Positions 33,001 through 61,109 of a DNA stretch of 64,000 nt are shown here, piece by piece (within the stretch, counting starts at the first letter, position 1; each line of letters begins with the position of its first letter). The position numbers and the translations under genes were made by a program. The notes below the pieces were generated by a model. It had not been told where the DNA came from, ran no database searches, and was given only the letters and a program-made list of their open reading frames with translations. This DNA comes from Shinisaurus crocodilurus (Eukaryota > Chordata > Lepidosauria > Squamata > Shinisauridae), in NCBI GenBank assembly GCA_021292165.1, contig CM037878.1:190091118-190155117 (forward strand), in the 5' to 3' direction.

Positions 33001-35917
33001 ATAGGAACCCTGTCAAAGAAAAGGAAAGACATATCCACGCTTTGCTTATTTTCCTCACTGTCTGAATTCTTCTATGCTAATCTATCACAAACAACACTAA
33101 ATCTTGAAAGCCTTGCTATCACCTCCTTCACTTGCCAGGGCAAGGAGGGTCCCTCTTCAGTGGCACTCCAGAAGATAACATCATTGCTCCTGCTCTGTAA
33201 AAAGACCTAGAGCTGTATTCCTTGCAAACTCCCCTCCACTATACCACTGCAAATGATACACCACAAAGCCTAATTGCGCACAGCCATTTACAGTCCAACT
33301 TCAGTGAATTATGGGCCATACACATAGAATACCTGACTCTTGCAGCATAATTTAGGCCCTGTCCACATGTACTGTTTCCCAAGAAACATATTAAGGCTAC
33401 AAGTACTATGCACACTTATCTGGGAGTAAGCACTACCAGAGATGGAAGTAAGTCTGACTGAGCAAACACACATAGGATTGCAACGCACAACATTTCAATA
33501 CATTTATGAAACTTCATATCCAGCAGGCATGTGCCCAAGAAGAAAAATGCTATCCACTCACCTTTGCAACTTTACCCATATCATCTAATGTTGCTCGCTC
33601 ATTTGGAAACTGGGAGAAGGTTTTCTCTATCTTAGCAATGACGGCATCTATATTCACTTTTTCTTTTGGACAACCATGAGGAAAATAAAATGTTGGAATG
33701 GTTTGGCTTAGAGATGGTGTCAAAGGTTCTTCTTTCTTTGACTGAACCTACAGAAAAAGTGGCACTTTTAAGATGTGATTAAAAAAAACCCAGGCAACTT
33801 GACAGTTCTCTCTCTGATGTCTGAAAAGTGCATTAAGGCTGCAATCCTGCACACAACCTGGGAGTAAACCTCATTGAACACAATGAGATTTACTTCTGAT
33901 TACAGAAGTATAGGATTGCCCTGTAATTTCCCCACCACTATTACACTCTCATGGTAAGAGTTCAATAAACCTTCAACAGGGGGCGGGGAAGGAAAAAGAG
34001 ATTTTTGTAAAACATAACAATGAACATAACATAACAATGTAAAACAATTCACTATCCCCAAAATTGGTGATACAAAAAGCTATCTTTTGCCCAATAACCT
34101 TCTCACCCACATTTAGAAACAGATTTCTAACAAAACATCTGCAATTATTCAAAGGTTATCTATTATTGGAACCAAGATTACCAAGTAATCACAAGCAAAT
34201 AATGAATAGTTTTGCTAAAAGTGACAGGACTACACTGTAATTTCCAGTTGTTTGGTATATCCTTATCTATACTAGCAGAGTGCAAGCTTTCTTTCAAGTC
34301 CAACAGGGAAAACAAGGAGTGGAAAAAATACTGCATCCTTGGAGGAGATGAGGGACACTTGCTTTAAAATAAATCTCAGTTTAAAGAAAAAAAAATCTCA
34401 TACCAACACTATGTATAGATGGCACAGTTACTAGCCCTGGAACATTAAACAAGTGGCATTAACATTTTTGATATGCAATTTAATAAAAAAAAGCTGTGAT
34501 GGAGGATTTGTCTTTTATTCATGTTGCCCCCTAGAGATATGGCAACATACAGCTAAATGTCAACAGATGGAATAAATCAGAGAAGTGCTATTCTAAGGCT
34601 GCAGTCCTATATACCAGTGATGGGGAACCTCCAGCCCATGGACCAGATGCGACCCTTAGAAGATTTCCATTTGGCCCATGGTGTGGGAGGTAGGGACTGC
34701 AAGGTTAACACCTCCCTGCCCACACATCAGGGTCCCAATTCAGATTGGGCCTTCAGTGCCTGCAATTTACACTGGAAATCTCCCAGTGGAGAGAATTGGG
34801 TGTTTTGCCCCCAGTGCAAATTGCAGGGAGGCGTGGTCTTTCTCCCTCTCATAATACTAGAGCCTGGGGTCATCCAAGGAAGCTAAATGGTGGGAAATTC
34901 AGGACCGATAAGAGGAAGTACTTCTTCACACAACACACAGTTAAACTGGATTTCACCACAAGATATAGTGATGGCTACCAACTTGGATAGCTTTAAAAGA
35001 GGATTAGACAAATTCATGGAGAAAAAGGCTATCAATAGCTGCTAGTCATGATGGCTATATACTACCTCCAGTAACAGAAGCAGTATGGCCATGCTGGCTG
35101 GAAATGACAGAAGACACAGTCCAACACATGTGGAGGAGAGAAGGTTGGAGAAATCTGCCCTAGAGAGATAACCTTTCTATCCCAGTCTCTATACCAGGTC
35201 CATGGCCATGAATGACTTTGATAAGCCTTGCTATGTATTGTCAGACTAAGTCTGCAATACTATATACACTTACTTGGGAATAAGTCCATTGAACTCAATG
35301 AGATTTACAGACATATGCAGGATTGCATTGTAGGACAAGTATATAAACATAGCATGATTTGCAATAGCAGCACAAAATATTGGGCATACATTTCTATAGT
35401 CGATTACTGTTTCTTGCTATGGAGACTCACAGTCACAGAAAAAAATGCAATATAAACATCGAAAACTGGGAAGCTCTGGCCCATGAACTAAATGGAGGTT
35501 GGCCTTTCATAAAGGTTCCATGGACTTTGAAGAAGCCCGAGTGCAAGGTGAAAGAGAGAAACGTGCTAAGCGAAAAGCTCGTCAAACGAATCCTTTACAG
35601 GACCATCTTCCATCTGGTAACCTGTGTCCTCACTGTGGGAAGCTGTGTGGATCTAGAATTGGCCTCCACAGTCACTTACAGACCCATCGCTAGAGTCTAC
35701 ACAAATTTTTTTTTACAATTTCCTCCTTTTATAATTTTCTTTTGGTAATTTTTATCCTGGAAGACAATCTTACTCGGTCATGAGTGATCGCCTACTACTA
35801 TGGAGATAATCTGCTGTAAGAAATTGCTGAAAATCTTGAAACTGATTTGCAAATTTACTTGTAAGACACTGCTGAGTTTGATATAATGATCTGCGTTATT
35901 TTTGTCATTCCCTGTGG

Positions 35918-39700: not shown

Positions 39701-42700
39701 TTTGGAAAAGGTTGATTATATTTAGAATTCCCTTCTTTACAACAGTAGCTTTGCTCCTTACACAATATTAGGCTTGTTAGAGCAAAAGGACACCACCAGC
39801 TGTCTGGAAAAACAAAAACACTATCAGCAGATAAGCCTTTCAGTAAACACCATTTAGGTTTTCAGATTACCGTAGTTGGTATATGCTCACAAATTCTTAT
39901 TGCAAAGGTTCAAAGAAATTATGGGCAAAAGGGGAACAGTTACCTTTAATGTTTTATGTTAAAGAATTAAGTGAATTTGTTATGTGCCACTACTTCACAC
40001 ACGTGTCCTCAACTTGTGACTGAAAAGAAATATAGTTACCCATTACTAGTTTTGTTTTACTATTGATCATAGAAAGAAAATAGGGAAAGGTTTTGTAGCT
40101 GAAGAAAAAAGGTTCCAACGATTTGAAAATAGAACTACCGGTATGTAATGATCAAAGATTTTGAAACCTCATAAACTTTTTTACCACTACTTAGCAAGTG
40201 CAATAACTGGCCTGCATACTAAGTTGCAAAGTAGCCATGGTCAAAGAATGAAAAGCCATTCTGGATCAGACCAAGGTCCATCTAGTCCAGCATTCTGTTT
40301 ACAGTGGCTAACCAGCTGCCCATGGGAAACCCACAAGCAGGACATGATAGCAACAGCACCCTCCCACTCATGTTCCACAGAAACTGGTGTACATAGGCAT
40401 ACTGCCTCTGATACTGGAGGCAGCATATAGGCATCAGGACTAGTAGCCATTGATAGCCTTCCCCTTCATGAATTTATCTATTCTCCTTTTAAAGCCATCC
40501 AAACTGGTGGCCATCACCACATCTTGTGGAAGTAAATTCCATAGTTTAACTCTGTGTTGTGAGGAAGTACTTCCTTTTATCTGTCCTGCATCTCCCACCA
40601 ATCCACTTCATGGGATGACCCCGAGTTCTAGTATTATGAGGGAGAAAAATGTGTCCCTATCCATTTTCTTCATGCCATGCACAATTTTGTACACCTCTAC
40701 CATGTCTACCCTCACTTGCCTTTTTTCTAAGCTAAACAGTTCCAGATGTTACCTTTCCTCATAGGGGAGTTGCTCCAGCTCCTTCATCTGTACTTTTCTG
40801 TTCTCCTGTTCTGTACTTTTTCCAACTCCATAATTTCCTTTTTTAGGCATGGTGACCAGAACTGTACACAGTATTCTAAGTGTGTTTGCACCATAGATTT
40901 GTGTAAGGGCAGTATGATCTTAGCAGTTTTATTTTCAATTCCTTTCCTAATTATGCCTAACATGGAATTCACCTTTTTCATAGCAGCCACACCTTGGGTC
41001 GATGTTTTCATGGAGCTGTCCATAACATTCTCAGATCTCTTTCTTGGTCAGTCACTCATAGCTCAGATCCTGTCAGCGTATATGTGAACTTGAGACTCCC
41101 CCTCCCCCCATGTGCATCACTTTACACTTGCTTACACTGAAGTGCATTTGCCATTTTGATGCCCATTTCCCAGTTTGAAGAGATCCTTTTGTAGCTCTTC
41201 ACCATTCCTTTTTGTTTTAGCCACCTTAATTTATTTGGCGTCATCAGCAAACTTGGCCACCTCACTGTTCACTCCTAATTCTAAATCATTTATGAACAAT
41301 AAATGATCATTCATAAATGAGGATACAATGGAGAGGAGGATTATGTCAGCCACCTTGGGTTCATTGAAGGAAAAAAGGCAGGATATACATTAAATAAGTA
41401 AGTAAAAAGTTGAAAAGCATTGGTCCAAATGCAGATCCCTGTGGGACCCCACTGTTTACATTCCTCCATTGGGAGAAGTTACAATTTATTCCTACTCTCT
41501 GCTTTCTGTTCTTTAACCAGTTACTGATCCATAAGAGGACCTCTCATCTTAATCTGTGAGTTTGCTCAGGAGGCTTTGGTGAGGGACTTTGTCAAAAGCC
41601 TTTCGGAAATCCAAGTAAACAATGTCTATTGGGTCACCCCTGTCCACATTTATTGACACACTCAAATAATTCTAAAAGGTTAGTGAGACTTACCGTATGT
41701 TTCCGTGTATAAGACGATACTTTTTCCTAAAATCGTTAGACTAAAAATTTAGGGTCGTCTTATACACGGAAGTACGGTAAGCCGAGGAGAGAATCAGGAA
41801 CAAGTCCTGCAACTCCCAGCATCCCTGGGGAATGCTGAGAATTGTAGGGCTTTAAAAAAGCAAACATGCACAGGACTGCGCCCTAAATCCCTTTAAAATG
41901 AGGACAATTTGCGTGTACAGCCTCGGGTGTATGGATGGGGGGGATAATGAATGGAGGAGGGGAACATGTGTAACAGTGAACCCCTCTCCCTTGACTTCAC
42001 GTCCGGGCCCCTTCCCAGCCTCCCTCTGGCTGCCACGTCAGGGGGAGAAGCAGAGGAGAGCCCGGTGCACCCCTTGTCCCTTTACAGGCTGCTGCTCACC
42101 ATGGGGCAAAAAACATGATGAAGTGCAGTGCGTTCTGGGCGCCATGGCGAAGCATCTCGGCGTTGTAGAGGTGCCGCGCATGAGGGTCCGTCTCGGCGCC
42201 TGCCGCTGCTGCCTCTTCCGTCTCCTCGGCCCGCACGGGAGCCCCGCGTAAGACCAGGCAGCAGAGCCAGGCAGGAGGCGTAAGAGGAGGCCCCGGGAAG
42301 GAGAGCGGCAACCATGGCGGCGGTGCAAAGGAAGAGAGAACTAAGAAGCCAGCCCGGACCATGTTGCCACTCCCGCAACTCCCAGTGCTGCCCGGGCGGC
42401 ATCTCTTCCAGCCTCCGCCCCCCAGCCCACCTTGGAGAGTCAAAGGATGACGGGGAGGGGGTGGAAGGAAAAGGCTGGCGACGCTAAGGCGAGTCTTGTC
42501 TCACTTTCTTCCCTCAAGCTCTCAGCTCAGGCTGAAGAGGGGCTTGGACCAGTGCTTCTCAAATAGTGGGGCGGGCCCCCCAGGGGGGGCGCGAGGCTCC
42601 GTAAAGGGGGGCTCGTTTGACCTCAGTTAAAAGTTTTTTTTAATATTGTGTTCCTTTAAATCCTGTGCTCCTTTAAATCTTTTCTGCTACAGTTAATAAA

Positions 42701-45700
42701 GCTATTCTTTGTTGTAAATTGATCCACATTTCTTTCTTTTTTTATTCTCTTATACGTTAATAAGGATACAGTGTTATGCAGAGGTGTACTTATAACAATT
42801 TTATAGACAAATGATACTATTTACAGTCGCGCGCGGGGGGGGGGCGCGAAATGTTTTCTTCTTCCTAGGGGGGGCATGACAGAAAATAATTGAGAAGCAC
42901 TGGCTTGGACTGAGGAAGTGGCCCATTGTTCCCTTGTGATGTATACTGTAATATCATAGTACTGGTATGTAAATGTTGCCTAATCACTAAATAAAAATGT
43001 GTTCTGTTTTATGTTTAAAATATTGATTTAAAAAAACGTGTTCTGTTTTATGTTTAAAATATTGATTTCTGAATTTTGAGTCAGAAATGTGGGGGGCGTC
43101 TTATACATGGTGTCGTCTTATACACGGAAACATACGGTAGCTTTGCAGAAGCCATGTTGATTCTTTCTCAGCAGGGCTTTTCCTTCTATATGCTCACTAA
43201 TTTTTTCTTTAATAATGCCTTCAACCAATTTACCTGGAACAGAAGTTAAGCTAACTGGCTTGTAATTTCCTGGATCCCCCTGAAACCCTTTTTAAAAACT
43301 GGTGTTACATTGGCCATTCTCCAGTCCCTTGGTATAGAGGCTGATCTTAGGGACATTACATATTTTTGTCAGAAGATCAGCAATTTCACATTTGAGTTCT
43401 TTAAGAACTCTAGGATGGATACTATCTGAGCCTGGCAATTTATTAACTTTCAATTTGTCAACAAGGTTGAGAACTTCATCTTTTGTCACCTCTCTTTGCC
43501 TCAGTCCCTCAGACTCCCTTCCTGAAAACATCAGTTCAGGCACAGGTATCTGCCCTGTATCTTCTGCAGTGAACACAGATGAAAATAATTCATTCAGTTT
43601 CTCTGCAATCTCCTTATCCTCCTTTAATAATCTTTTAACTCCATTGCCTTGGTGTGAGTATGGAACACTGTGCAGACTCTTTGAACACCGGACCCTTTGA
43701 ATCCACCCCTGAAGAAACTTCTAAATTGAGTCAAAATGTAAATTGAGTAGTTCCTCCCTGATTGAAGGAGTTGCCATTATGGGGTGACCCAAGTTCTGTA
43801 TATACTAAAGATTAGAGAATTTACTCAGAAAACACAAGCTTTCATACATTTGATACATTTTATTGATGTTTGATTTTCTGATAGTTAATGTAAGACTAAA
43901 CACTTTATTTATAAACTAGTTATGTTTAATGAGCATTTCCTTTTGATTAAGTATGCTAAATAATATATTCAACTACTAAAAGGGGAGTTTAAAAGCCCTG
44001 TGTGCACACAGTAAATGAATGACAAGTTAAGATGACCTTCCATCTCCCTTTTGCAGCCTTCAGTATATGGCATTAGCAGAACAGAAGCAAAATTGTTGAA
44101 AATTATATCAAGCATGCTTAGGAGCTGCACAGTGCATACTATGCAACTCCTGTTGCCTTGGTTGGGAGCAATGCTATGCCAAAAGCAAATCACTGACCAT
44201 AGGGACAATCAACTTTGAAGCAATTCTAAATTAAATCTCAAGTACTTCACAGTATACTTAGTTCAAATATATGACTCTTTCATCAATGGAAGACTGTAGA
44301 TGTTCTTTGTTTTAAATACACATACCACAAAATATTATGGGGGTTTCCTTCAATCATCTATGAGTTCTTATAATTGCAAGGTTCAGTCTGCACACATATA
44401 CACAAACATTTCTGCCAGACAGCCCACACACAAAACTTAAAAGACAAGAAAGAAAAATAATCTAGCTATGTGTCTACTTACTGTAGAGGTGGAAGGGAAA
44501 GGAAGGGGGTAATATTGATCTAGGAAAAATGTACTCCGAGTTCAAAAGCATTAGATACATGATTAAAAATGAAACAAAACAAAATCACACAGGAAAACAT
44601 GCAAGACCATAATGTCAAACATTTCTCCTTGAACATTATTTTTTGATAGCTGTGTTATTTTTGGCAACAGAAACCACAATATCATTGTATGCTAAAACAC
44701 ATGTCTGATAAAGCAAATGAAGAAAGCATTATGAAATTTTAAATTAAAGTGGAATTATTTCCCTAGTTTTGTCACGTTTCCAAGAACATGGGAACATGAC
44801 AACATTATTTAAATTAAAATTTATGTCCCGCCTTTCAGGCAAAATGGCCTCTCAAGACAGCTTTTTATTTTTACACAATATTTAAAATTATGAGACTAAA
44901 ATCCAGTGTCTGATCAGAAAATTGGAATAATGTAAAATATGTGGATGTAACAACATTAGGGGTTCACATTTCCTCTATATAGCAATAGAAAAGCAGAAGC
45001 CTTTTTTTACTCCTTTTATATTAATACAATGTCCCACTCAATTCTGGTAGGCTTAGTTTAAAATAATAAACAACTGTTAACTGTAAATTTTTATAGGTAA
45101 AAGAACTTAAGAAATGCTTCACACATTACATTGTTTACTGGTACAAGGAAAAGATTGATGGGTACTCAGAAAACGCAGCAAGTTTTGAGTATTGTATATT
45201 ATTCAGGTATCTATGCCAAGGGACACATTCCCTGTTGAATGTTTACTACCATGTAAACATTAAGCAACTTTAAGAGTAAAAGATTGGTTTGTTGTCTAGA
45301 CCAGTCGTCTTTAACTTTTTAAGACTCAGGATGCACCTTTAACCCCAACCTGTAAAATGGGACCTATACCTCATATGTGTACTCCATATATACCCAGCTT
45401 TCTCCCCCCCCCCCGCCATCTCGTTTTCTCTATATACGGTACATCTGCTCAGAAGTCTCACCTAGTTTAATGTGGTTTATTCCCAGGTAAGTGAGTATAA
45501 GATTGCAGCCTTAAAAACAAACAAACAAACAAACACAAGAAAATAAAAGTAATGGTAGTGTCAGTAGCATAATTGCCCACTTCCTGATCCAACCCGGCAG
45601 TTGAAGTCAATGGTCTAGACTAGAGTCTAAGGGCAGGCAGAAGGTAGATCAGATCACCCAGAGATCTACTAGCAGGCCTGTAGTAGATTGGCAAGTGTTT

Positions 45701-60700: not shown

Positions 60701-61109
60701 ACTATAAAGCAAAAAGTCATATCTTACTTAAGTTTAAGATAGCTGATCAAGAAGTAAAGGCACTTACACTTCTGGTGCTTGAAGATCTACGTATTCCTCG
60801 AATATTAGAAAAGCTCCTTGGGCTTGTTGGAGTTCCGAGAGGAAGAGCAGTAGAAAGATGGGGAGGGCTGGTAGGAGTCAAAGGAGACATCAGATTGCCT
60901 AACATGCTTTGCTTGGAGACACAGTTTATCTGAGTAACATGTTCATTGCTCCCAGCATCACCACTACCAATTTCAATCTTCTCTTCATTGGTTATATTTC
61001 TTAAATAGTCCTTGAGCATCACCTGAGTCGCAGTTTCACTCAACCAGCACAAAAAGAGCTCATCCACTTTCATTTTTAGTACAGGCTGCAAAACTTTCAC
61101 AGCTGGCAT
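18145..61109 (-). CDS. PPP2R3B: PP2A regulatory subunit B'' beta (PR70/PR48 type), complete
   Basis: The product is a nuclear/cytosolic targeting subunit of protein phosphatase 2A. It binds the scaffold and catalytic subunits, and family work links PR70 to CDC6 and replication licensing. Thirteen coding exons with consistent phases give 1740 nt, 579 residues (human PR70 is 575). The N-terminus [20 protein letters not shown] and the C-terminal [15 protein letters not shown] are diagnostic of PPP2R3B rather than PPP2R3A. Two EF-hand loops are seen. The first, at about residues 333-344 ([12 protein letters not shown]), is atypical. The second, at 407-418 ([12 protein letters not shown]), is canonical for calcium. 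The first intron of the long form spans 27 kb and is full of mobile elements. The 5' UTR continues upstream through an acceptor at 61193. The gene is convergent with the STAG-like gene. Confidence 0.96.
18528..18635. repeat. TGCAATCCTATGCA palindromic repeat pair
   Basis: ACAGGATTGCAGCCTTACAG adjoins GTGCAATCCTATGCATGTCT. The second ends CAGAATTGCAGCCT. Two units lie back to back in a PPP2R3B intron. Confidence 0.6.
19616..19722 (-). CDS. PPP2R3B: PPP2R3B coding exon 12
   Basis: 35 codons plus two bases: an acidic start, then [20 protein letters not shown], matching PR70 [17 protein letters not shown]. The donor is gtaagt. Confidence 0.95.
19835..19953 (-). CDS. PPP2R3B: PPP2R3B coding exon 11
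   Basis: Two bases complete Gly, then 39 codons: [39 protein letters not shown]. Donor gtaagt. Confidence 0.95.
20033..20143. repeat. Near-perfect hairpin MITE
   Basis: The left arm GGGTGCAATCCTATGCATGT and right arm ATGCATAGGATTGCACCC are complementary. The stem continues through GTTTAGACAGAAAAAAAGTC, giving a stem of about 45 bp and a short loop. It lies in the intron between PPP2R3B exons 10 and 11. Confidence 0.8.
20631..20806 (-). CDS. PPP2R3B: PPP2R3B coding exon 10 (canonical EF-hand)
   Basis: 58 codons: [56 protein letters not shown]. The loop [12 protein letters not shown] has all calcium-coordinating positions of an EF-hand. Confidence 0.96.
21310..21399 (-). CDS. PPP2R3B: PPP2R3B coding exon 9
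   Basis: One base, 29 codons and two bases: [20 protein letters not shown] then SEEDKKTAT. The acceptor (TTTCAAAG) is purine-rich and weak, with an alternative AG six bases downstream. The frame supports the upstream one. Confidence 0.92.
21530..21715 (-). mobile_element. Antisense tRNA-derived CORE-SINE
   Basis: It contains CAGCCACCCTGTGAGGGAGA, GACTGGCCTAAAGTCACGCA and TTTTGAACCTGGATT, the antisense of the SINE core and tRNA B box. A clearer relative is at 37048-37268. Confidence 0.55.
22413..22461 (-). CDS. PPP2R3B: PPP2R3B coding exon 8 (49-bp microexon-like)
   Basis: A short exon of 49 bp: two bases, 15 codons ([15 protein letters not shown]), two bases. Acceptor TTCACAG, donor gtgtct. 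Confidence 0.93.
22890..23490. mobile_element. Fragment of the CAACAAGCCACCCTGACAA transposon family, partly inverted
   Basis: It carries the complement of the block AGTGCTTTTCAATGGACAGC found at 52669, then AAACATACAAGGAAACTGAC in the same sense as 53044. After that comes the complement of the TGTCACTGG block. The internal orientation differs from the copy at 51.7 kb, so the family contains inverted internal modules. Confidence 0.5.
23494..24112 (-). mobile_element. L2-like LINE 3' end, antisense
   Basis: The - strand encodes scrambled frames of the LINE ORF2 C-terminus: [61 protein letters not shown]. It ends in an (ATT)n run. The copy is frameshifted and 5'-truncated. Confidence 0.8.
24113..24290. 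mobile_element. End fragment of the CAACAAGCCACCCTGACAA family
   Basis: GGGTGGCTTGTTACTGAAAG, AAGCCACCCTGTGGG and GACAACCCATCATGGCTAG match subterminal blocks of the copies at 4.2 and 51.7 kb. Confidence 0.5.
25137..25293 (-). CDS. PPP2R3B: PPP2R3B coding exon 7 (first EF-hand)
   Basis: This exon is 52 codons plus one base: [34 protein letters not shown]. The EF-hand loop [12 protein letters not shown] has Asp at positions 1, 3, 5 and 9 but Asp rather than Glu at 12 and no Gly at 6, as in human PR70. Confidence 0.95.
25331..25446. repeat. Hairpin MITE, same family as 20033-20143
   Basis: The arms GATGCAATCCTATGCATGTT and CTTGCATAGGATTTCACC flank TTTAGACAGAAAAAGGT and its complement. It lies 37 bp upstream of the PPP2R3B exon 7 acceptor. 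Confidence 0.75.
25550..25810. repeat. Palindromic AACCCAGAGTT-type element
   Basis: The inverted segments CTGGGTTGTTTAACCCC and GGGTTAAACAACTCAGAATT, with GGTTCGGATGTCATGA, recall the GTTGTCATGTCCGAAC modules of the larger transposon family. The limits are uncertain. Confidence 0.35.
26865..27252. mobile_element. hAT MITE carrying a (CA)n tract
   Basis: The ends TAGGTGGGGAACCTTTTTTG and CGTGGGCCAGATGTTCACC are inverted versions of the GGGGAAC...GGCC hAT termini. A (CA)n microsatellite lies at about 26983-27017. Confidence 0.55.
27558..27644 (-). CDS. PPP2R3B: PPP2R3B coding exon 6
   Basis: This exon is 29 whole codons: [19 protein letters not shown] then [10 protein letters not shown]. Acceptor TTCAG, donor gtatga. 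Confidence 0.95.
28059..28170. mobile_element. Palindromic hAT MITE
   Basis: The 112-bp copy from CAGCCTTTCCCAATCTGGTG to GGTTGGGGAAGGCTG is flanked by TTATATTG and CTATATTG, a 7/8 match to an 8-bp duplication. Confidence 0.8.
28201..28336. mobile_element. Palindromic hAT MITE with perfect 8-bp duplication
   Basis: It is 136 bp with arms AGGGCTCTCCAACCTTGGGT and its exact complement. GTCTAGAG lies at both 28193-28200 and 28337-28344. It is a second, distinct MITE family 30 bp from the previous one. Confidence 0.88.
28383..28590 (-). mobile_element. CR1 LINE 3' end, antisense
   Basis: It starts with the characteristic CR1 terminal repeat ATAGAATCATAGAA, then GAGTTGGAAGGGGCCTACAG and CGAGTCCAACCCCCTGCTCA, and runs into the CR1 3' UTR. 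Confidence 0.8.
28692..28912. repeat. Fragment related to the GGGTTGTT transposon modules
   Basis: GTGGGTTGTTGATGTGG and AACAAACCACCCACAACCC form inverted modules like those at 25.5 and 37.4 kb. The assignment is weak. Confidence 0.3.
29195..29680 (-). mobile_element. L2-like LINE 3' end, antisense
   Basis: TTTATTTATTTATCTAGCTG, then CTGGGCAGCTCACAATATAA. The - strand encodes [19 protein letters not shown], the L2-type ORF2 C-terminal motif. Confidence 0.7.
30156..30230 (-). CDS. PPP2R3B: PPP2R3B coding exon 5
   Basis: This exon is 25 whole codons: [18 protein letters not shown] then HSRYITT. Both splice sites are consensus (TCTTAG, gtaagt). Confidence 0.95.
30390..30527. mobile_element. 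Palindromic hAT MITE with perfect 8-bp duplication
   Basis: 138 bp, arms GCAGCCTTCCCCAACCTGG and the complement at the right end. TGTATACT flanks at 30382-30389 and 30528-30535. Confidence 0.85.
31087..31189 (-). CDS. PPP2R3B: PPP2R3B coding exon 4
   Basis: One base completes Lys, then 34 codons: [16 protein letters not shown] and [17 protein letters not shown]. These are near-identical to the family. Donor gtaaat. Confidence 0.95.
31650..31753 (-). CDS. PPP2R3B: PPP2R3B coding exon 3
   Basis: This exon is 34 codons plus two bases. It encodes [34 protein letters not shown]. The human protein reads FYGAGGERTG; the Cys replacing Gly here is a local oddity. Confidence 0.94.
32271..32376. mobile_element. 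Palindromic hAT MITE, shortened
   Basis: CAGCCTTCTCCAAGATGTG at the left and CCAGGTTGGGGGAGGCTG at the right, with inner CCAGCATGGCCATTGGCTGA. Confidence 0.65.
32795..32880. repeat. TGCAATCCTATGCA short repeat
   Basis: TCTGCAATCCTATGCATAGT followed by CTGGGAGTAAGCTCCACTGA, the typical left half of the unit. Confidence 0.6.
33393..33485. repeat. Short palindromic repeat (GGGAGTAAGC unit)
   Basis: TATCTGGGAGTAAGCACTAC near the start and ACATAGGATTGCAAC at the end mark a degenerate copy. Confidence 0.5.
33562..33747 (-). CDS. PPP2R3B: PPP2R3B coding exon 2
   Basis: This exon is 62 whole codons, acceptor CTGTAG, donor gtgagt. It encodes [21 protein letters not shown] and [15 protein letters not shown], matching PR70 (IPTFYFPRG, DAVISKIESTF). 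It is the common exon that both first exons can join. Confidence 0.95.
33836..33925. repeat. TGCAATCCT short palindromic repeat
   Basis: AGGCTGCAATCCTGCACACA, CTGGGAGTAAACCTCATTGA, and a terminal TATAGGATTGC. It lies 90 bp upstream of PPP2R3B exon 2 on the - strand. Confidence 0.6.
34603..34860. mobile_element. hAT MITE fragment
   Basis: GTGATGGGGAACCTCCAGCC and ATTTGGCCCATGG are the left terminal region of a GGGGAACCT-type hAT element. A GC-richer interior follows. Confidence 0.45.
34866..35095 (+). mobile_element. CR1 LINE 3' fragment, sense
   Basis: AGGAAGTACTTCTTCACACA, GATATAGTGATGGCTACCAA and TTAGACAAATTCATGGAG are standard CR1 3' region sequence. The antisense of the same region is seen at 40.5 kb. 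Confidence 0.75.
35247..35336. repeat. TGCAATCCTATACA short palindromic repeat
   Basis: It begins TCTGCAATACTATATACACT, has CATTGAACTCAATGAGATTT in the middle and ends GCAGGATTGCATTG. Confidence 0.6.
35455..35800 (+). pseudogene. LINE ORF2 C-terminal fragment with CCHH zinc finger
   Basis: At 35499-35693 the frame encodes a basic linker ([13 protein letters not shown]) and [19 protein letters not shown] with TH following, then a stop. This CxxC...SRIGLxSHxxxH finger is typical of the extreme C-terminus of some non-LTR retrotransposon polyproteins. The upstream part is in another frame (ENWEALAHE), so the copy is frameshifted and truncated. The LINE clade is not certain. Confidence 0.55.
35918..35963 (+). 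repeat. (TA)n(TG)n compound microsatellite
   Basis: A TA run of about 9 units is followed by a TG run of about 12. Confidence 0.9.
36668..36732 (+). repeat. (TG)n(AG)n microsatellite
   Basis: GTGTGTGTCTGTG is followed by about 24 GA units. The open frames through it encode only Arg-Glu or Leu-Ser repeats. Confidence 0.9.
36877..37036. mobile_element. Palindromic hAT MITE
   Basis: TTGGTGCCCTCTGGATGAGT, ACTACAATTCCCATC, then the inverted GTAGTCCAACACATCTGGAA and CACCAGGTTGGGGAAAG. Confidence 0.65.
37048..37268 (-). mobile_element. tRNA-derived SINE, antisense
   Basis: It starts TTTATTTATTTCATTTATAC and CCCGCCTTTTTTCCTGCAAG, then ACAACCCTGTGAGGTAGG. It ends in CTAGTCCCAGTCCAGCACTC, the complement of a tRNA-like head with B box GACTAGAACCC upstream. 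Confidence 0.7.
37445..37640. repeat. Palindromic AATAAACCATGGTTTATT element
   Basis: A perfect 18-bp palindrome AATAAACCATGGTTTATT is followed by ATCATAACATCCGAACCAG. TGGTTTGTAATCCGAGATTA opens the left side. It resembles the 25.5 and 26.4 kb elements. Confidence 0.4.
37680..37845 (+). mobile_element. 5S rRNA-derived SINE with CR1-like tail
   Basis: This is a better copy than 16595-16756. GAAAGCTAAGCAGGGTCAGG and TTACTTGGATGGGAGACC match the 5S rRNA gene. GGGCTCGATAGCCTTGTAGG and TCCTTCCAACTCTAT match the CR1 tail. Confidence 0.85.
37846..38782. other. PPP2R3B: PPP2R3B intron, no recognised feature
   Basis: A/T-rich sequence with no repeat or exon that I can recognise. Confidence 0.5.
38783..38968 (-). 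mobile_element. tRNA-Ala-derived SINE, antisense
   Basis: The complement of 38910-38968 reads GGGCTGTAGCTCAGTGGTAG, AGCATATGCTTTGCATGAAG, then GTTCAATCCCCGCC. This is a tRNA-Ala(TGC)-like head with A and B boxes. The body ends at CATAGGAAGCTGCCTTATAT. Confidence 0.8.
39012..39034 (+). repeat. (TTAA)n microsatellite
   Basis: Five to six TAAT units follow GGCTAAATA. Confidence 0.85.
42100..42315 (-). pseudogene. TXNDC5: Captured TXNDC5 first exon (inside TIR transposon)
   Basis: On the - strand the frame ending at 42100 encodes [27 protein letters not shown] and [11 protein letters not shown]. This is the end of exon 1 of TXNDC5 (ERp46, an ER thioredoxin-domain protein; human: DPHSKHLYTADM, FVMFFAPW). 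It is followed by an intact gtgagc donor at the same codon position. A start with ideal Kozak context lies at 42315, but the 216 nt to the donor show a one-base frame error between signal peptide and mature part. Flanking GC-rich DNA (about 42000-42480) is probably its promoter, 5' UTR and start of intron 1. Retention of the donor means a DNA-level, not RNA-mediated, copy. Confidence 0.72.
42550..42902. mobile_element. hAT MITE with perfect 8-bp duplication, nested
   Basis: CAGTGCTTCTCAAATAGTGG at the left and AATTGAGAAGCACTG at the right are inverted. GCTTGGAC is found at 42542-42549 and 42903-42910. It is inserted in the TIR transposon, so it is the youngest layer of the stack. Confidence 0.9.
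43691..48715. other. PPP2R3B: PPP2R3B intron, sparse repeats
   Basis: Mostly A/T-rich unique-looking sequence. Small items are an L2-type tail start at about 44825 (ATGTCCCGCCTTTCAGGC), a hAT-like end at about 45301 (AGTCGTCTTTAACTTTTTAA), a TTGCAGCCTTA repeat end near 45513 and (AAAC)n at 45516-45537. A GT/GA tract lies at 46355-46381. No exon was recognised. Confidence 0.45.
47650..47677 (+). repeat. (TGCA)n microsatellite
   Basis: About seven CATG units in a row; self-complementary, so a potential cruciform. Confidence 0.9.
48716..48847 (-). CDS. PPP2R3B: PPP2R3B alternative first exon (PR72-like N-terminus)
   Basis: An ATG at 48847 opens 44 codons ending at a gtttgt donor in phase 0, so it joins directly to the exon at 33747. 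The peptide starts [18 protein letters not shown] and contains [18 protein letters not shown]. It is nearly identical to the N-terminus of the PR72 isoform of the paralogue PPP2R3A. The predicted isoform has 509 residues. An internal promoter just upstream is implied; no obvious CpG island is seen there. Confidence 0.88.
48848..50335. other. PPP2R3B: Upstream of the alternative PPP2R3B exon, no recognised repeat
   Basis: On the - strand this is the likely location of the internal promoter for the PR72-like isoform. It is not CpG-rich. The open frame continues upstream of the ATG at 48847 without a further in-frame ATG that matches the family. Confidence 0.35.
50340..50436. repeat. Short palindromic repeat (AAGTCTTGAGTTCAATGGGA unit)
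   Basis: TTTACAGCCCCATCTTATGT at the left, TTGAGTTCAATGGGACTTAT in the centre, GGGATCACAGCCC at the right. Confidence 0.5.
50755..51180. mobile_element. GC-rich non-autonomous element with AATCCTAT ends
   Basis: GCAATCCTATGGATTATGCT opens and AACAATCCTATATTCCC closes a block that is much more GC-rich than its surroundings. It resembles 61418-61855 in layout. No coding content was recognised. Confidence 0.4.
51440..51695. mobile_element. Tc1/mariner (Tigger-like) MITE
   Basis: The ends CAGGCAGTCCCCGAGTTAAG and AACTTGGGGACTGCCTG are inverted and flanked by TA on each side; 256 bp in all. There is no transposase. Confidence 0.85.
51708..53458 (+). mobile_element. Non-autonomous transposon, CAACAAGCCACCCTGACAA family, interrupted
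   Basis: This is the longest copy of the family, with GGGCAACAAGCCACCCTGAC, GTTGTCGTGTTGTCCGAACC, TGTCACTGGGTTCC, AGTGCTTTTCAATGGACAGC and GAAACATACAAGGCAATTGA. It ends near GGCTTAGCGTGACATACAAC. A Tigger-like MITE sits inside at 52757-53007. Long internal inverted segments (AAATTTAATGGCTGAGAAG and a later complement near 52240) are present. Confidence 0.55.
52757..53007. mobile_element. Tc1/mariner-like MITE, nested
   Basis: CAGTAATACCTTGGATTGCA at the left and CAATCCAAGGCATGACTG at the right, with TA on both sides; 251 bp. Confidence 0.85.
54100..56135 (+). pseudogene. CR1 LINE ORF2 remnant (endonuclease and reverse transcriptase)
   Basis: Endonuclease pieces appear at 54230-54600 ([13 protein letters not shown], then frameshifts). 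The reverse transcriptase follows at 55236-55980: [76 protein letters not shown] and the catalytic FADDTKLGG (Asp-Asp at about 55905). [16 protein letters not shown] follows at 56012. There are several frameshifts, and it breaks off at about 56135 without the 3' end. It is a dead copy, sense to the + strand and antisense to PPP2R3B. Confidence 0.9.
56250..56337. repeat. TGCAATCCTATACA short palindromic repeat, well preserved
   Basis: GCTGCAATCCTATACACATT, CCATTGAACTCAGTGGGACT, GTATAGGATTGCC: both arms and the internal palindrome are intact. Confidence 0.7.
57472..57603. mobile_element. Palindromic hAT-like MITE (GGGCAGAAG arms)
   Basis: GTGGGCAGAAGATGGATCTC and GAGATCTACCTTCTGCCCAC are inverted, with GTTTTGGACTTTAACTGCC inside. 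It is a third palindromic MITE type. Confidence 0.7.
57604..60767. other. PPP2R3B: PPP2R3B intron, no recognised feature
   Basis: About 3.1 kb of largely A/T-rich sequence next to coding exon 1. No clear repeat, exon or RNA gene was seen. Confidence 0.5.
60768..61109 (-). CDS. PPP2R3B: PPP2R3B coding exon 1 (long, PR70-type N-terminus)
   Basis: This exon is 114 codons from the ATG at 61109 to a gtaagt donor. It encodes [20 protein letters not shown] then a Ser/Thr/Pro-rich linker ending RRSSSTRS, as in PR70. I chose this ATG because the family starts with MPxxKVLQPVL. The open frame upstream has no ATG. Confidence 0.95.

What the first reader, a model, noticed from the sequence alone, without database searches (positions are those of the whole stretch)
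41691..43139. A TIR DNA transposon has captured the first exon of TXNDC5, with its splice donor
Two perfect 25-bp inverted repeats with flanking TA enclose a GC-rich segment. On the - strand it encodes the exon 1 end of TXNDC5 (HLYNAEM...FIMFFAPW) followed by gtgagc at the expected codon position. A Kozak ATG is also present. Splice-site retention indicates DNA-level capture, as in plant Pack-type elements; such transduplication is rarely documented in vertebrates. It sits in sense orientation inside the PPP2R3B intron, so a captured promoter or exon could be used.
Basis: partly seen in the sequence, partly recalled or inferred. Interest (0 to 1): 0.88.

Follow-up and report, generated by a model that had tools for sequence, protein, structure and literature searches.

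The report
Transposon family carrying stolen gene starts
A cut-and-paste jumping gene in a vertebrate genome copied the start of the host gene TXNDC5, promoter and splice site included, and spread it to about forty places; the same jumping-gene family also spread the start of a second host gene.

Summary
Window 41691-43139 is a transposon with 30-bp, 97% terminal inverted repeats in a PPP2R3B intron. On the minus strand it carries a copy of 804 bp of TXNDC5: the start of intron 1, coding exon 1 with ATG and GTGAGC splice donor, and upstream sequence. The parent gene, with its further exons, lies on another chromosome of the same genome, without transposon ends.

It is one of 40 loci found with this cargo (29 of 40 keep both ends). 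31 of 34 copies compared reach the same two capture limits: one capture, then transposition. Siblings with the same right end hold broken frames of a pogo-like DDE transposase. Others carry the 5' end of a second, MEAF6-like gene with its intron; all 40 loci scored (of 718 candidates) match it. Eight TXNDC5 copies lie in or next to end modules of a related TIR family.

Use is not supported: no codon-position constraint, CpGs decay in the copies and not in the parent, and the window copy is frameshifted. The kind (Pack-TIR) is in print for animals, with only four multicopy cases in 100 genomes. About 40 copies, two gene cargoes and exchanged ends make this a new variant.

The parts
41691..43139 (-). 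whole TIR element with TXNDC5 cargo (strand = sense of cargo)
41691..41720 (.). left terminal inverted repeat (starts TA)
43110..43139 (.). right terminal inverted repeat (ends TA)
41691..41795 (+). left module: palindromic 89 bp plus 16 bp, shared with transposase remnant L088 and the MEAF6-type elements, so read as native transposon 5' end
41796..42935 (-). captured TXNDC5 stretch (804 bp in the parent), interrupted by the nested insertion 42550-42902
41796..42099 (-). start of TXNDC5 intron 1; GT of splice donor at 42099-42098
42100..42315 (-). TXNDC5 coding exon 1, ATG 42315-42313, frameshifted in this copy (216 nt vs 221)
42316..42549 (-). TXNDC5 upstream region (5' UTR / CpG-rich promoter side), first part
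42550..42902 (.). nested hAT-like insertion with 8-bp duplication GCTTGGAC (42542-42549 / 42903-42910); 5 other loci at 97-99% identity
42903..42935 (-). rest of the captured TXNDC5 upstream region up to the right capture limit (begins with the second copy of the 8-bp duplication)
42936..43139 (+). right module: 3' end of a pogo-like transposon (3' untranslated part plus TIR)
33562..33747 (-). host gene PPP2R3B, exon downstream of the element (starts in phase 0)
60993..61109 (-). host gene PPP2R3B, start of the first coding exon, upstream of the element

Best explanation
The element is a non-autonomous, pogo-like (Tc1/mariner) TIR transposon of the Pack type. Shown: it keeps the 5' end (105 bp) and 3' end (about 204 bp) of a transposon whose relatives carry a DDE transposase. 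Between them it carries one 804-bp stretch copied as DNA from the 5' end of the host gene TXNDC5. Inferred: during repair or stalled replication of a transposon copy the polymerase switched template to the TXNDC5 promoter/exon 1 and back; the hybrid kept both ends, so the transposase of relatives in trans mobilised it to about 40 places. Shown: the same transposon ends also carry the 5' end of a second gene (MEAF6-like, intron kept), and some TXNDC5 elements sit within the ends of a related TIR family. Inferred: the copies are now mostly neutral, methylated and decaying. The window copy is one such neutral insertion in a PPP2R3B intron, later hit by a hAT-like element.
For: Parent: TXNDC5 on C5 minus strand; tblastn pieces in order cover nearly all of human residues 59-432. 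The element consensus has no match to its end modules in the 88 kb around it at E 1e-3. Cargo limits: 31 of 34 copies reach from 1 to 804 of the parent stretch; exceptions L026 1-803, L024 1-774, L041 7-450. Intron-1 sequence is included. A 165-bp insert with 8-bp duplication CACATGTG inside the captured stretch of the parent is absent from the element consensus, and the copies were aligned to the parent with that insert taken out; so the copied stretch reflects the parent before that insertion. Family: 40 loci with cargo or part of it, 37 with left end, 30 with right end, 29 with both. In the 39 loci with enough flank fetched (L058 left out), 100-bp flanks match only among the 8 second-generation copies and in one pair, L056/L059. 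Transposase: L077, L085 and L087 carry the same right end (for L077 108 bp at 93.5% and 73 bp at 88%) next to transposase frames; Pfam on pieces of L077 and L087 gives DDE_1 (E 1.1e-11, 3.5e-10) and HTH_Tnp_Tc5 (E 4e-11). L088 joins the left module and its 16-bp continuation to transposase pieces. Second cargo: L065, and all 40 scored loci (L065 included) of 718 candidates; Pfam NuA4 E 6.1e-10 over the spliced exons of L070; L070-L074, 5 of 5, have the same 89-bp left module, though L071 and L072 share flanks and may be one insertion.
Against: No copy with an unbroken transposase and both ends was seen: L077, L085 and L087 have broken frames, and no left module was found in the DNA held for them. 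The TA duplication was not proven by an empty site: the joined flanks found no other CR1 copy across the junction in the DNA held. Template switching is inferred; by eye the junctions share about 1 bp on the left and none on the right. The parent of the MEAF6-like cargo was not located: the protein search for it did not complete, and three loci looked at were ordinary copies. BrkDBD, expected of some pogo-like transposases (recalled), stayed just below its Pfam cut-off (22.2 against 23.4 bits).
Confidence: 0.93

Rival explanations
1. The copies are segmental duplications or retrocopies of TXNDC5, and the inverted repeats are chance or later insertions.
For: One pair (L056/L059) shares both flanks.
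Against: Intron-1 sequence is present, so it is no retrocopy. Flanks of the other copies tested are unrelated apart from the second-generation set. Siblings with the same ends carry other interiors.
Confidence: 0.02
2. The captured promoter and exon are used: the elements disperse working first exons, and the window copy gives PPP2R3B an alternative start.
For: Sense orientation; ATG at 42315 and GT at 42099 kept (GT in 34 of 34 copies). Spliced to PPP2R3B exon 33747 the 216-nt window exon reads in phase 0 without a stop; the phase alone fits by chance one time in three.
Against: CpG sites differ from the parent at 13-28% in the copies, against 4.8-7.0% at other sites, which suggests germline methylation. 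Codon positions 1/2/3 vary at 0.037/0.040/0.026, not less than intron 0.023 and upstream 0.018. Only 13 of 34 copies keep ATG, phase and no stop, and several of those 13 read out of frame inside.
Confidence: 0.06
3. The TXNDC5 lineage arose by cargo exchange inside a MEAF6-carrying element rather than by a separate capture into a transposase-bearing or deleted copy.
For: TXNDC5 elements and L065 share the left 105 bp and the long right end. The MEAF6-type family looks larger (718 first-look candidates against 41) and is more diverged.
Against: The TXNDC5 junctions lie further out than the MEAF6 ones of L065 on both sides, which any capture into a transposon copy would also give. No element with both cargoes was seen among the loci fetched.
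Confidence: 0.35

Closest known systems
Pack-TIR elements of animals (Tan et al. 2021, PMC8277862; seen: outline with abstract, passages, sections 7, 10 and 12)
   Same: TIR transposon ends around a DNA copy of a host stretch with a known parent; TcMariner is their second commonest source; multicopy ones lie far from the parent and tend to take high-GC stretches.
   Different: That survey reports four multicopy cases in 100 genomes (three in western clawed frog, one in American alligator), its frog example with three insertions and 291 bp of a 5' UTR. Here there are 40 loci, 804 bp with upstream region, whole coding exon 1 and splice donor, a second gene cargo in the same transposon and exchanged ends. 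Its main text names neither TXNDC5, MEAF6 nor pogo; whether the alligator case is this one could not be checked (supplement look-ups not available).
Pack-MULEs of plants (as described in PMC8277862; otherwise recalled)
   Same: Multicopy TIR elements carrying gene fragments, related elements with different genes, preference for GC-rich stretches.
   Different: Mutator-type transposons there; pogo-like DDE_1 transposase and short TA-bounded TIRs here; vertebrate host here.
Ssk-FB4 of Drosophila melanogaster (PMC8277862)
   Same: Multicopy animal Pack-TIR with promoter side and gene part, moved by transposition.
   Different: Nearly whole gene, four copies, expressed, with peptide evidence there; first exon only, about 40 decayed copies and no sign of use here.
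pogo-like (Tc1/mariner) DNA transposons and their MITEs (family features recalled)
   Same: DDE_1 and HTH_Tnp_Tc5 domains beside the shared end; TIRs bounded by TA.
   Different: Ordinary deletion derivatives carry no host gene; these do.

Membership tests
Pack-TIR | terminal inverted repeats of a DNA transposon on both sides of the foreign stretch | tested here: met
   window copy 30 bp at 97%; 29 of 40 loci keep both ends
Pack-TIR | foreign stretch has an identifiable parent elsewhere in the genome | tested here: met
   TXNDC5, C5:132096501-132097477; consensus 94% over 639 bp and 88% over 184 bp
Pack-TIR | parent is not itself flanked by the transposon | tested here: met
   the element consensus matches only the captured stretch and one 63-bp piece of it in 88 kb around the parent; no end modules
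Pack-TIR | copied as DNA, not a retrocopy | tested here: met
   intron-1 sequence beyond the GT in the cargo; MEAF6-type cargo keeps an intron between exons 1 and 2 in the 5 copies read
Pack-TIR | moved by transposition: unrelated flanks and target duplication | tested here: inconclusive
   unrelated flanks met; TA duplication not proven by an empty site
pogo-like Tc1/mariner | DDE_1 transposase with HTH_Tnp_Tc5 between the same ends | tested here: inconclusive
   L077, L085, L087 have transposase beside the same right end, domains called on pieces of L077 and L087, but their left ends were not seen; L088 has both ends with transposase remnants, not scanned with Pfam
pogo-like Tc1/mariner | catalytic triad intact in an active copy | not tested
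Helitron | no TIRs, 3' hairpin and CTRR end (recalled) | tested here: not met
   has TIRs and TA bounds

The most novel reading that the evidence does not exclude
A vertebrate pogo-like lineage behaves like a plant Pack-MULE: its ends repeatedly pick up CpG-rich 5' ends of host genes (promoter side, first exon, splice donor), amplify them to tens or hundreds of copies and exchange ends with related families. It thereby scatters ready-made first exons, some of which, as in PPP2R3B, could make in-frame chimeric transcripts.
Probability: 0.4. Interest if true: 0.87.

Novelty: new variant of a known kind. Interest (0 to 1): 0.72.

Why it matters
In the one animal survey read, gene capture by cut-and-paste transposons was nearly always single-copy, which limits study of how capture happens. 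Here one capture is ordered against an insertion in the parent, followed by about 40 copies, and a second gene start rides in the same transposon. That gives replicate events for testing why gene 5' ends are taken and whether scattered first exons are ever used.

Tried and rejected
Considered and rejected: retrocopy (intron present), segmental duplication (flanks unrelated), Helitron (TIRs), chance inverted repeat, GC block native to the transposon (siblings with the same ends and other interiors; parent gene found). A composite of two whole MITEs was considered because the left 89 bp is itself palindromic. It was dropped because the next 16 bp match the 5' region of L088 and of the MEAF6-type elements, and the right end is the transposon 3' end. 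Sign of selection in the copies was sought and not found. A third gene cargo was sought in 13 right-end siblings (10 fetched plus 3 search loci, of 40 scored): MEAF6-like cargo or remnants in 7 of 13, transposase or remnants in 4 of 13, L080 unresolved, L076 a short sibling; no third gene was recognised. Three loci looked at as possible MEAF6 parents were ordinary element copies; the other scored loci that were not fetched could still include it. The PDB did not identify the MEAF6 piece. An empty CR1 site was not found. A search with the left module never got an answer. Paper searches: one with TXNDC5 and one with MEAF6, each with 'transposon' and 'captured', listed two unrelated papers each; more general ones are. 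Only listings were seen for all papers but PMC8277862.
Full report
OBSERVATION. The window holds the inverted repeats 41691-41720 and 43110-43139 (30 nt, 97%), bounded by TA, in sequence that looks like a CR1 LINE (recognised from memory; part of the left flank matches a repeat at 78% in L037). Between them lies a block of up to 0.68 GC that encodes the end of TXNDC5 exon 1 on the minus strand. The host gene is PPP2R3B, minus strand, with exons at 61109-60993 and 33747-33562 on either side.

FAMILY. The assembly that holds the window (G000, 2.19 Gb) was searched with the element and with the exon part. The second search had 41 first-look candidates; 40 were scored and all 40 matched: the window, the parent gene and 38 others. 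With one fragment found by its right end (L068, element 739-1093 only) there are 40 loci with cargo or part of it, the window included; by BLAST to the consensus 37 keep the left end, 30 the right and 29 both. In 39 of the 40 (L058 lacked flank) 100-bp flanks were compared; matches occur only in the two groups described below. The stretch 42550-42902 has an 8-bp duplication and five near-identical copies elsewhere, so it is a later hAT-like insertion. 37 of 40 loci span that point unbroken; the others are the window, L041 (truncated) and L024, which breaks off there and has its right end about 1.6 kb further on.

PARENT. One match, L040, has no TIRs and almost undecayed CpGs (1.8% against 7-24% for the other 34 rows, measured to the consensus). 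A tblastn of human TXNDC5 over 88 kb there found its exons in order on the minus strand, from exon 1 (last base C5:132097000) to the final coding exon, covering nearly all of residues 59-432. The exon 1 / exon 2 junction splits the tryptophan codon as TG|G, and GTGAGC sits at the same codon position in the element. The element matches the parent over one stretch of 804 bp, C5:132096501-132097477, once a 165-bp insert with 8-bp duplication CACATGTG is taken out of the parent. That insert is absent from the element consensus, so the captured stretch reflects the parent before the insertion. Of 34 copies compared, 31 reach from 1 to 804; L026 spans 1-803, L024 1-774, L041 7-450; some have deletions inside, such as L042. 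One capture followed by transposition explains this.

DECAY. Copies differ from the parent by 4.8-7.0% at sites outside CpG and 13-28% at CpG (34 copies). In a tree of 34 rows (L041 left out) the parent groups with L038, L042, L019 and L036 (98/93), which are therefore the oldest-looking copies. ATG, phase and absence of stops are kept in 13 of 34 copies, several of them out of frame inside; GT of the splice donor is kept in 34 of 34. Minor-allele rates at codon positions 1, 2 and 3 are 0.037, 0.040 and 0.026, against 0.023 in intron and 0.018 upstream, so there is no sign of protein constraint. The window copy is frameshifted from its true ATG (216 nt against 221). This happens to put it in phase with PPP2R3B exon 33747, without a stop. 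I treat that as permission, not evidence.

CHASSIS AND TRANSPOSASE. Searches with the right 203 bp (337 candidates, 40 scored) and with the right end of a sibling (546 candidates, 40 scored) reached elements without TXNDC5. Of 13 siblings read (L076-L088, where L076 is the locus of L066), L077, L085 and L087 carry a transposase in broken frames next to the same right end. Pfam calls DDE_1 and HTH_Tnp_Tc5 on frame pieces of L077 and L087. L088 has both ends and transposase remnants. The TXNDC5 element's left 105 bp, including the 16 bp after the palindromic 89 bp, match the 5' end of L088, and its right module starts near the transposase stop codon. The element is thus read as a deletion derivative of a pogo-like transposon in which the middle was replaced by host DNA.

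SECOND CARGO. L065 has the same ends and another GC-rich interior. Read on the minus strand it gives exon 1, a GT-AG intron and exon 2 of a MEAF6/EAF6-like gene. The spliced reading of L070 is [60 protein letters not shown], Pfam NuA4 E 6.1e-10 (the name MEAF6 is recalled). In L065 exon 2 meets a stop, and L071, L073 and L074 lose the MEAF6 reading within exon 2. All 40 scored loci of 718 candidates match the L065 interior, the 39 others at 76-86% in their best piece, many over part of it only. Five of five loci fetched with that search (L070-L074; L071 and L072 share flanks) have the shared left module, as have L090 and L091 but not L089 among three more. L067 and several right-end siblings keep only small pieces of it. 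Its parent gene was not found; the protein search for it did not complete.

END EXCHANGE. L014, L015, L023, L033, L035 and L037 lie next to or inside a second, related TIR (left end TACCGTATTTTCCGGCGTATAAGACGAC), and flanks of L060 and L068 match theirs. In L015, L035 and L037 the right end is replaced as well; L014 and L023 have a longer right side; the right side of L033 is lost. The six fall within one branch of 11 rows (100/98).

MECHANISM. Shown: ends, parent, one set of capture limits, many unrelated insertion sites, transposase in relatives. Inferred: template switching during gap repair or at a stalled fork, as in the models discussed in PMC8277862; supply of transposase in trans; germline methylation from CpG decay. 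Not shown: any transcript or any use by PPP2R3B.

KNOWN. PMC8277862 (outline with abstract, passages, sections 7, 10 and 12 seen) reports 370 animal Pack-TIRs in 100 genomes, four of them multicopy, three in frog and one in American alligator. Its main text does not mention TXNDC5 or MEAF6; the alligator entry is in a supplement that I could not read. G000 is unnamed; its few very large chromosomes (five of 227-321 Mb) suggest a crocodilian, which is recall and inference only. If it is an alligator, that entry may be this family. Searches naming TXNDC5 and MEAF6 with 'transposon' and 'captured' listed no paper on such a capture.

VERDICT. Real, correctly read by the first stage in its main point, and larger than it appeared: an amplified Pack-type family of pogo-like origin with two gene cargoes. 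The kind is known; copy number, first-exon cassette, second cargo and exchanged ends make it a new variant.

Noticed in passing
42550-42902: Nested hAT-like insertion with 8-bp duplication GCTTGGAC; five other loci at 97-99% identity.
   Followed up: partly
L065 5393-6488; L070-L074: Same transposon ends around the 5' end of a MEAF6-like gene (exon 1, intron, exon 2); large diverged family.
   Followed up: partly
L014, L015, L023, L033, L035, L037, L060, L068: TXNDC5 elements next to or inside end modules of a related TIR family: ends exchanged after the first amplification.
   Followed up: partly
C5:132096201-132097977 (L040): Parent TXNDC5 intron 1 has a 165-bp insertion with 8-bp duplication CACATGTG that the element consensus lacks, which orders the events.
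   Followed up: yes
42100-42315 with 33747-33562: If spliced, the window exon would read in frame into PPP2R3B without a stop (216 nt, phase 0).
   Followed up: partly
L056 and L059: Two copies share both 100-bp flanks at 99-100%: recent duplication or assembly duplicate. L071 and L072 of the MEAF6-type likewise.
   Followed up: no
L024 (C5:166708332-166711022): Copy broken at the same point as the window's hAT site, with about 1.6 kb between its two parts; what lies there was not read.
   Followed up: no
L073 2939-3110: 172-bp element with both ends and almost no interior, 0.7 kb from a MEAF6-type copy.
   Followed up: no
L089 (reverse complement, around 1090-1249): Right side joins a piece resembling the transposon 5' region (as in L088) to its 3' end, a further rearrangement seen by eye.
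   Followed up: no
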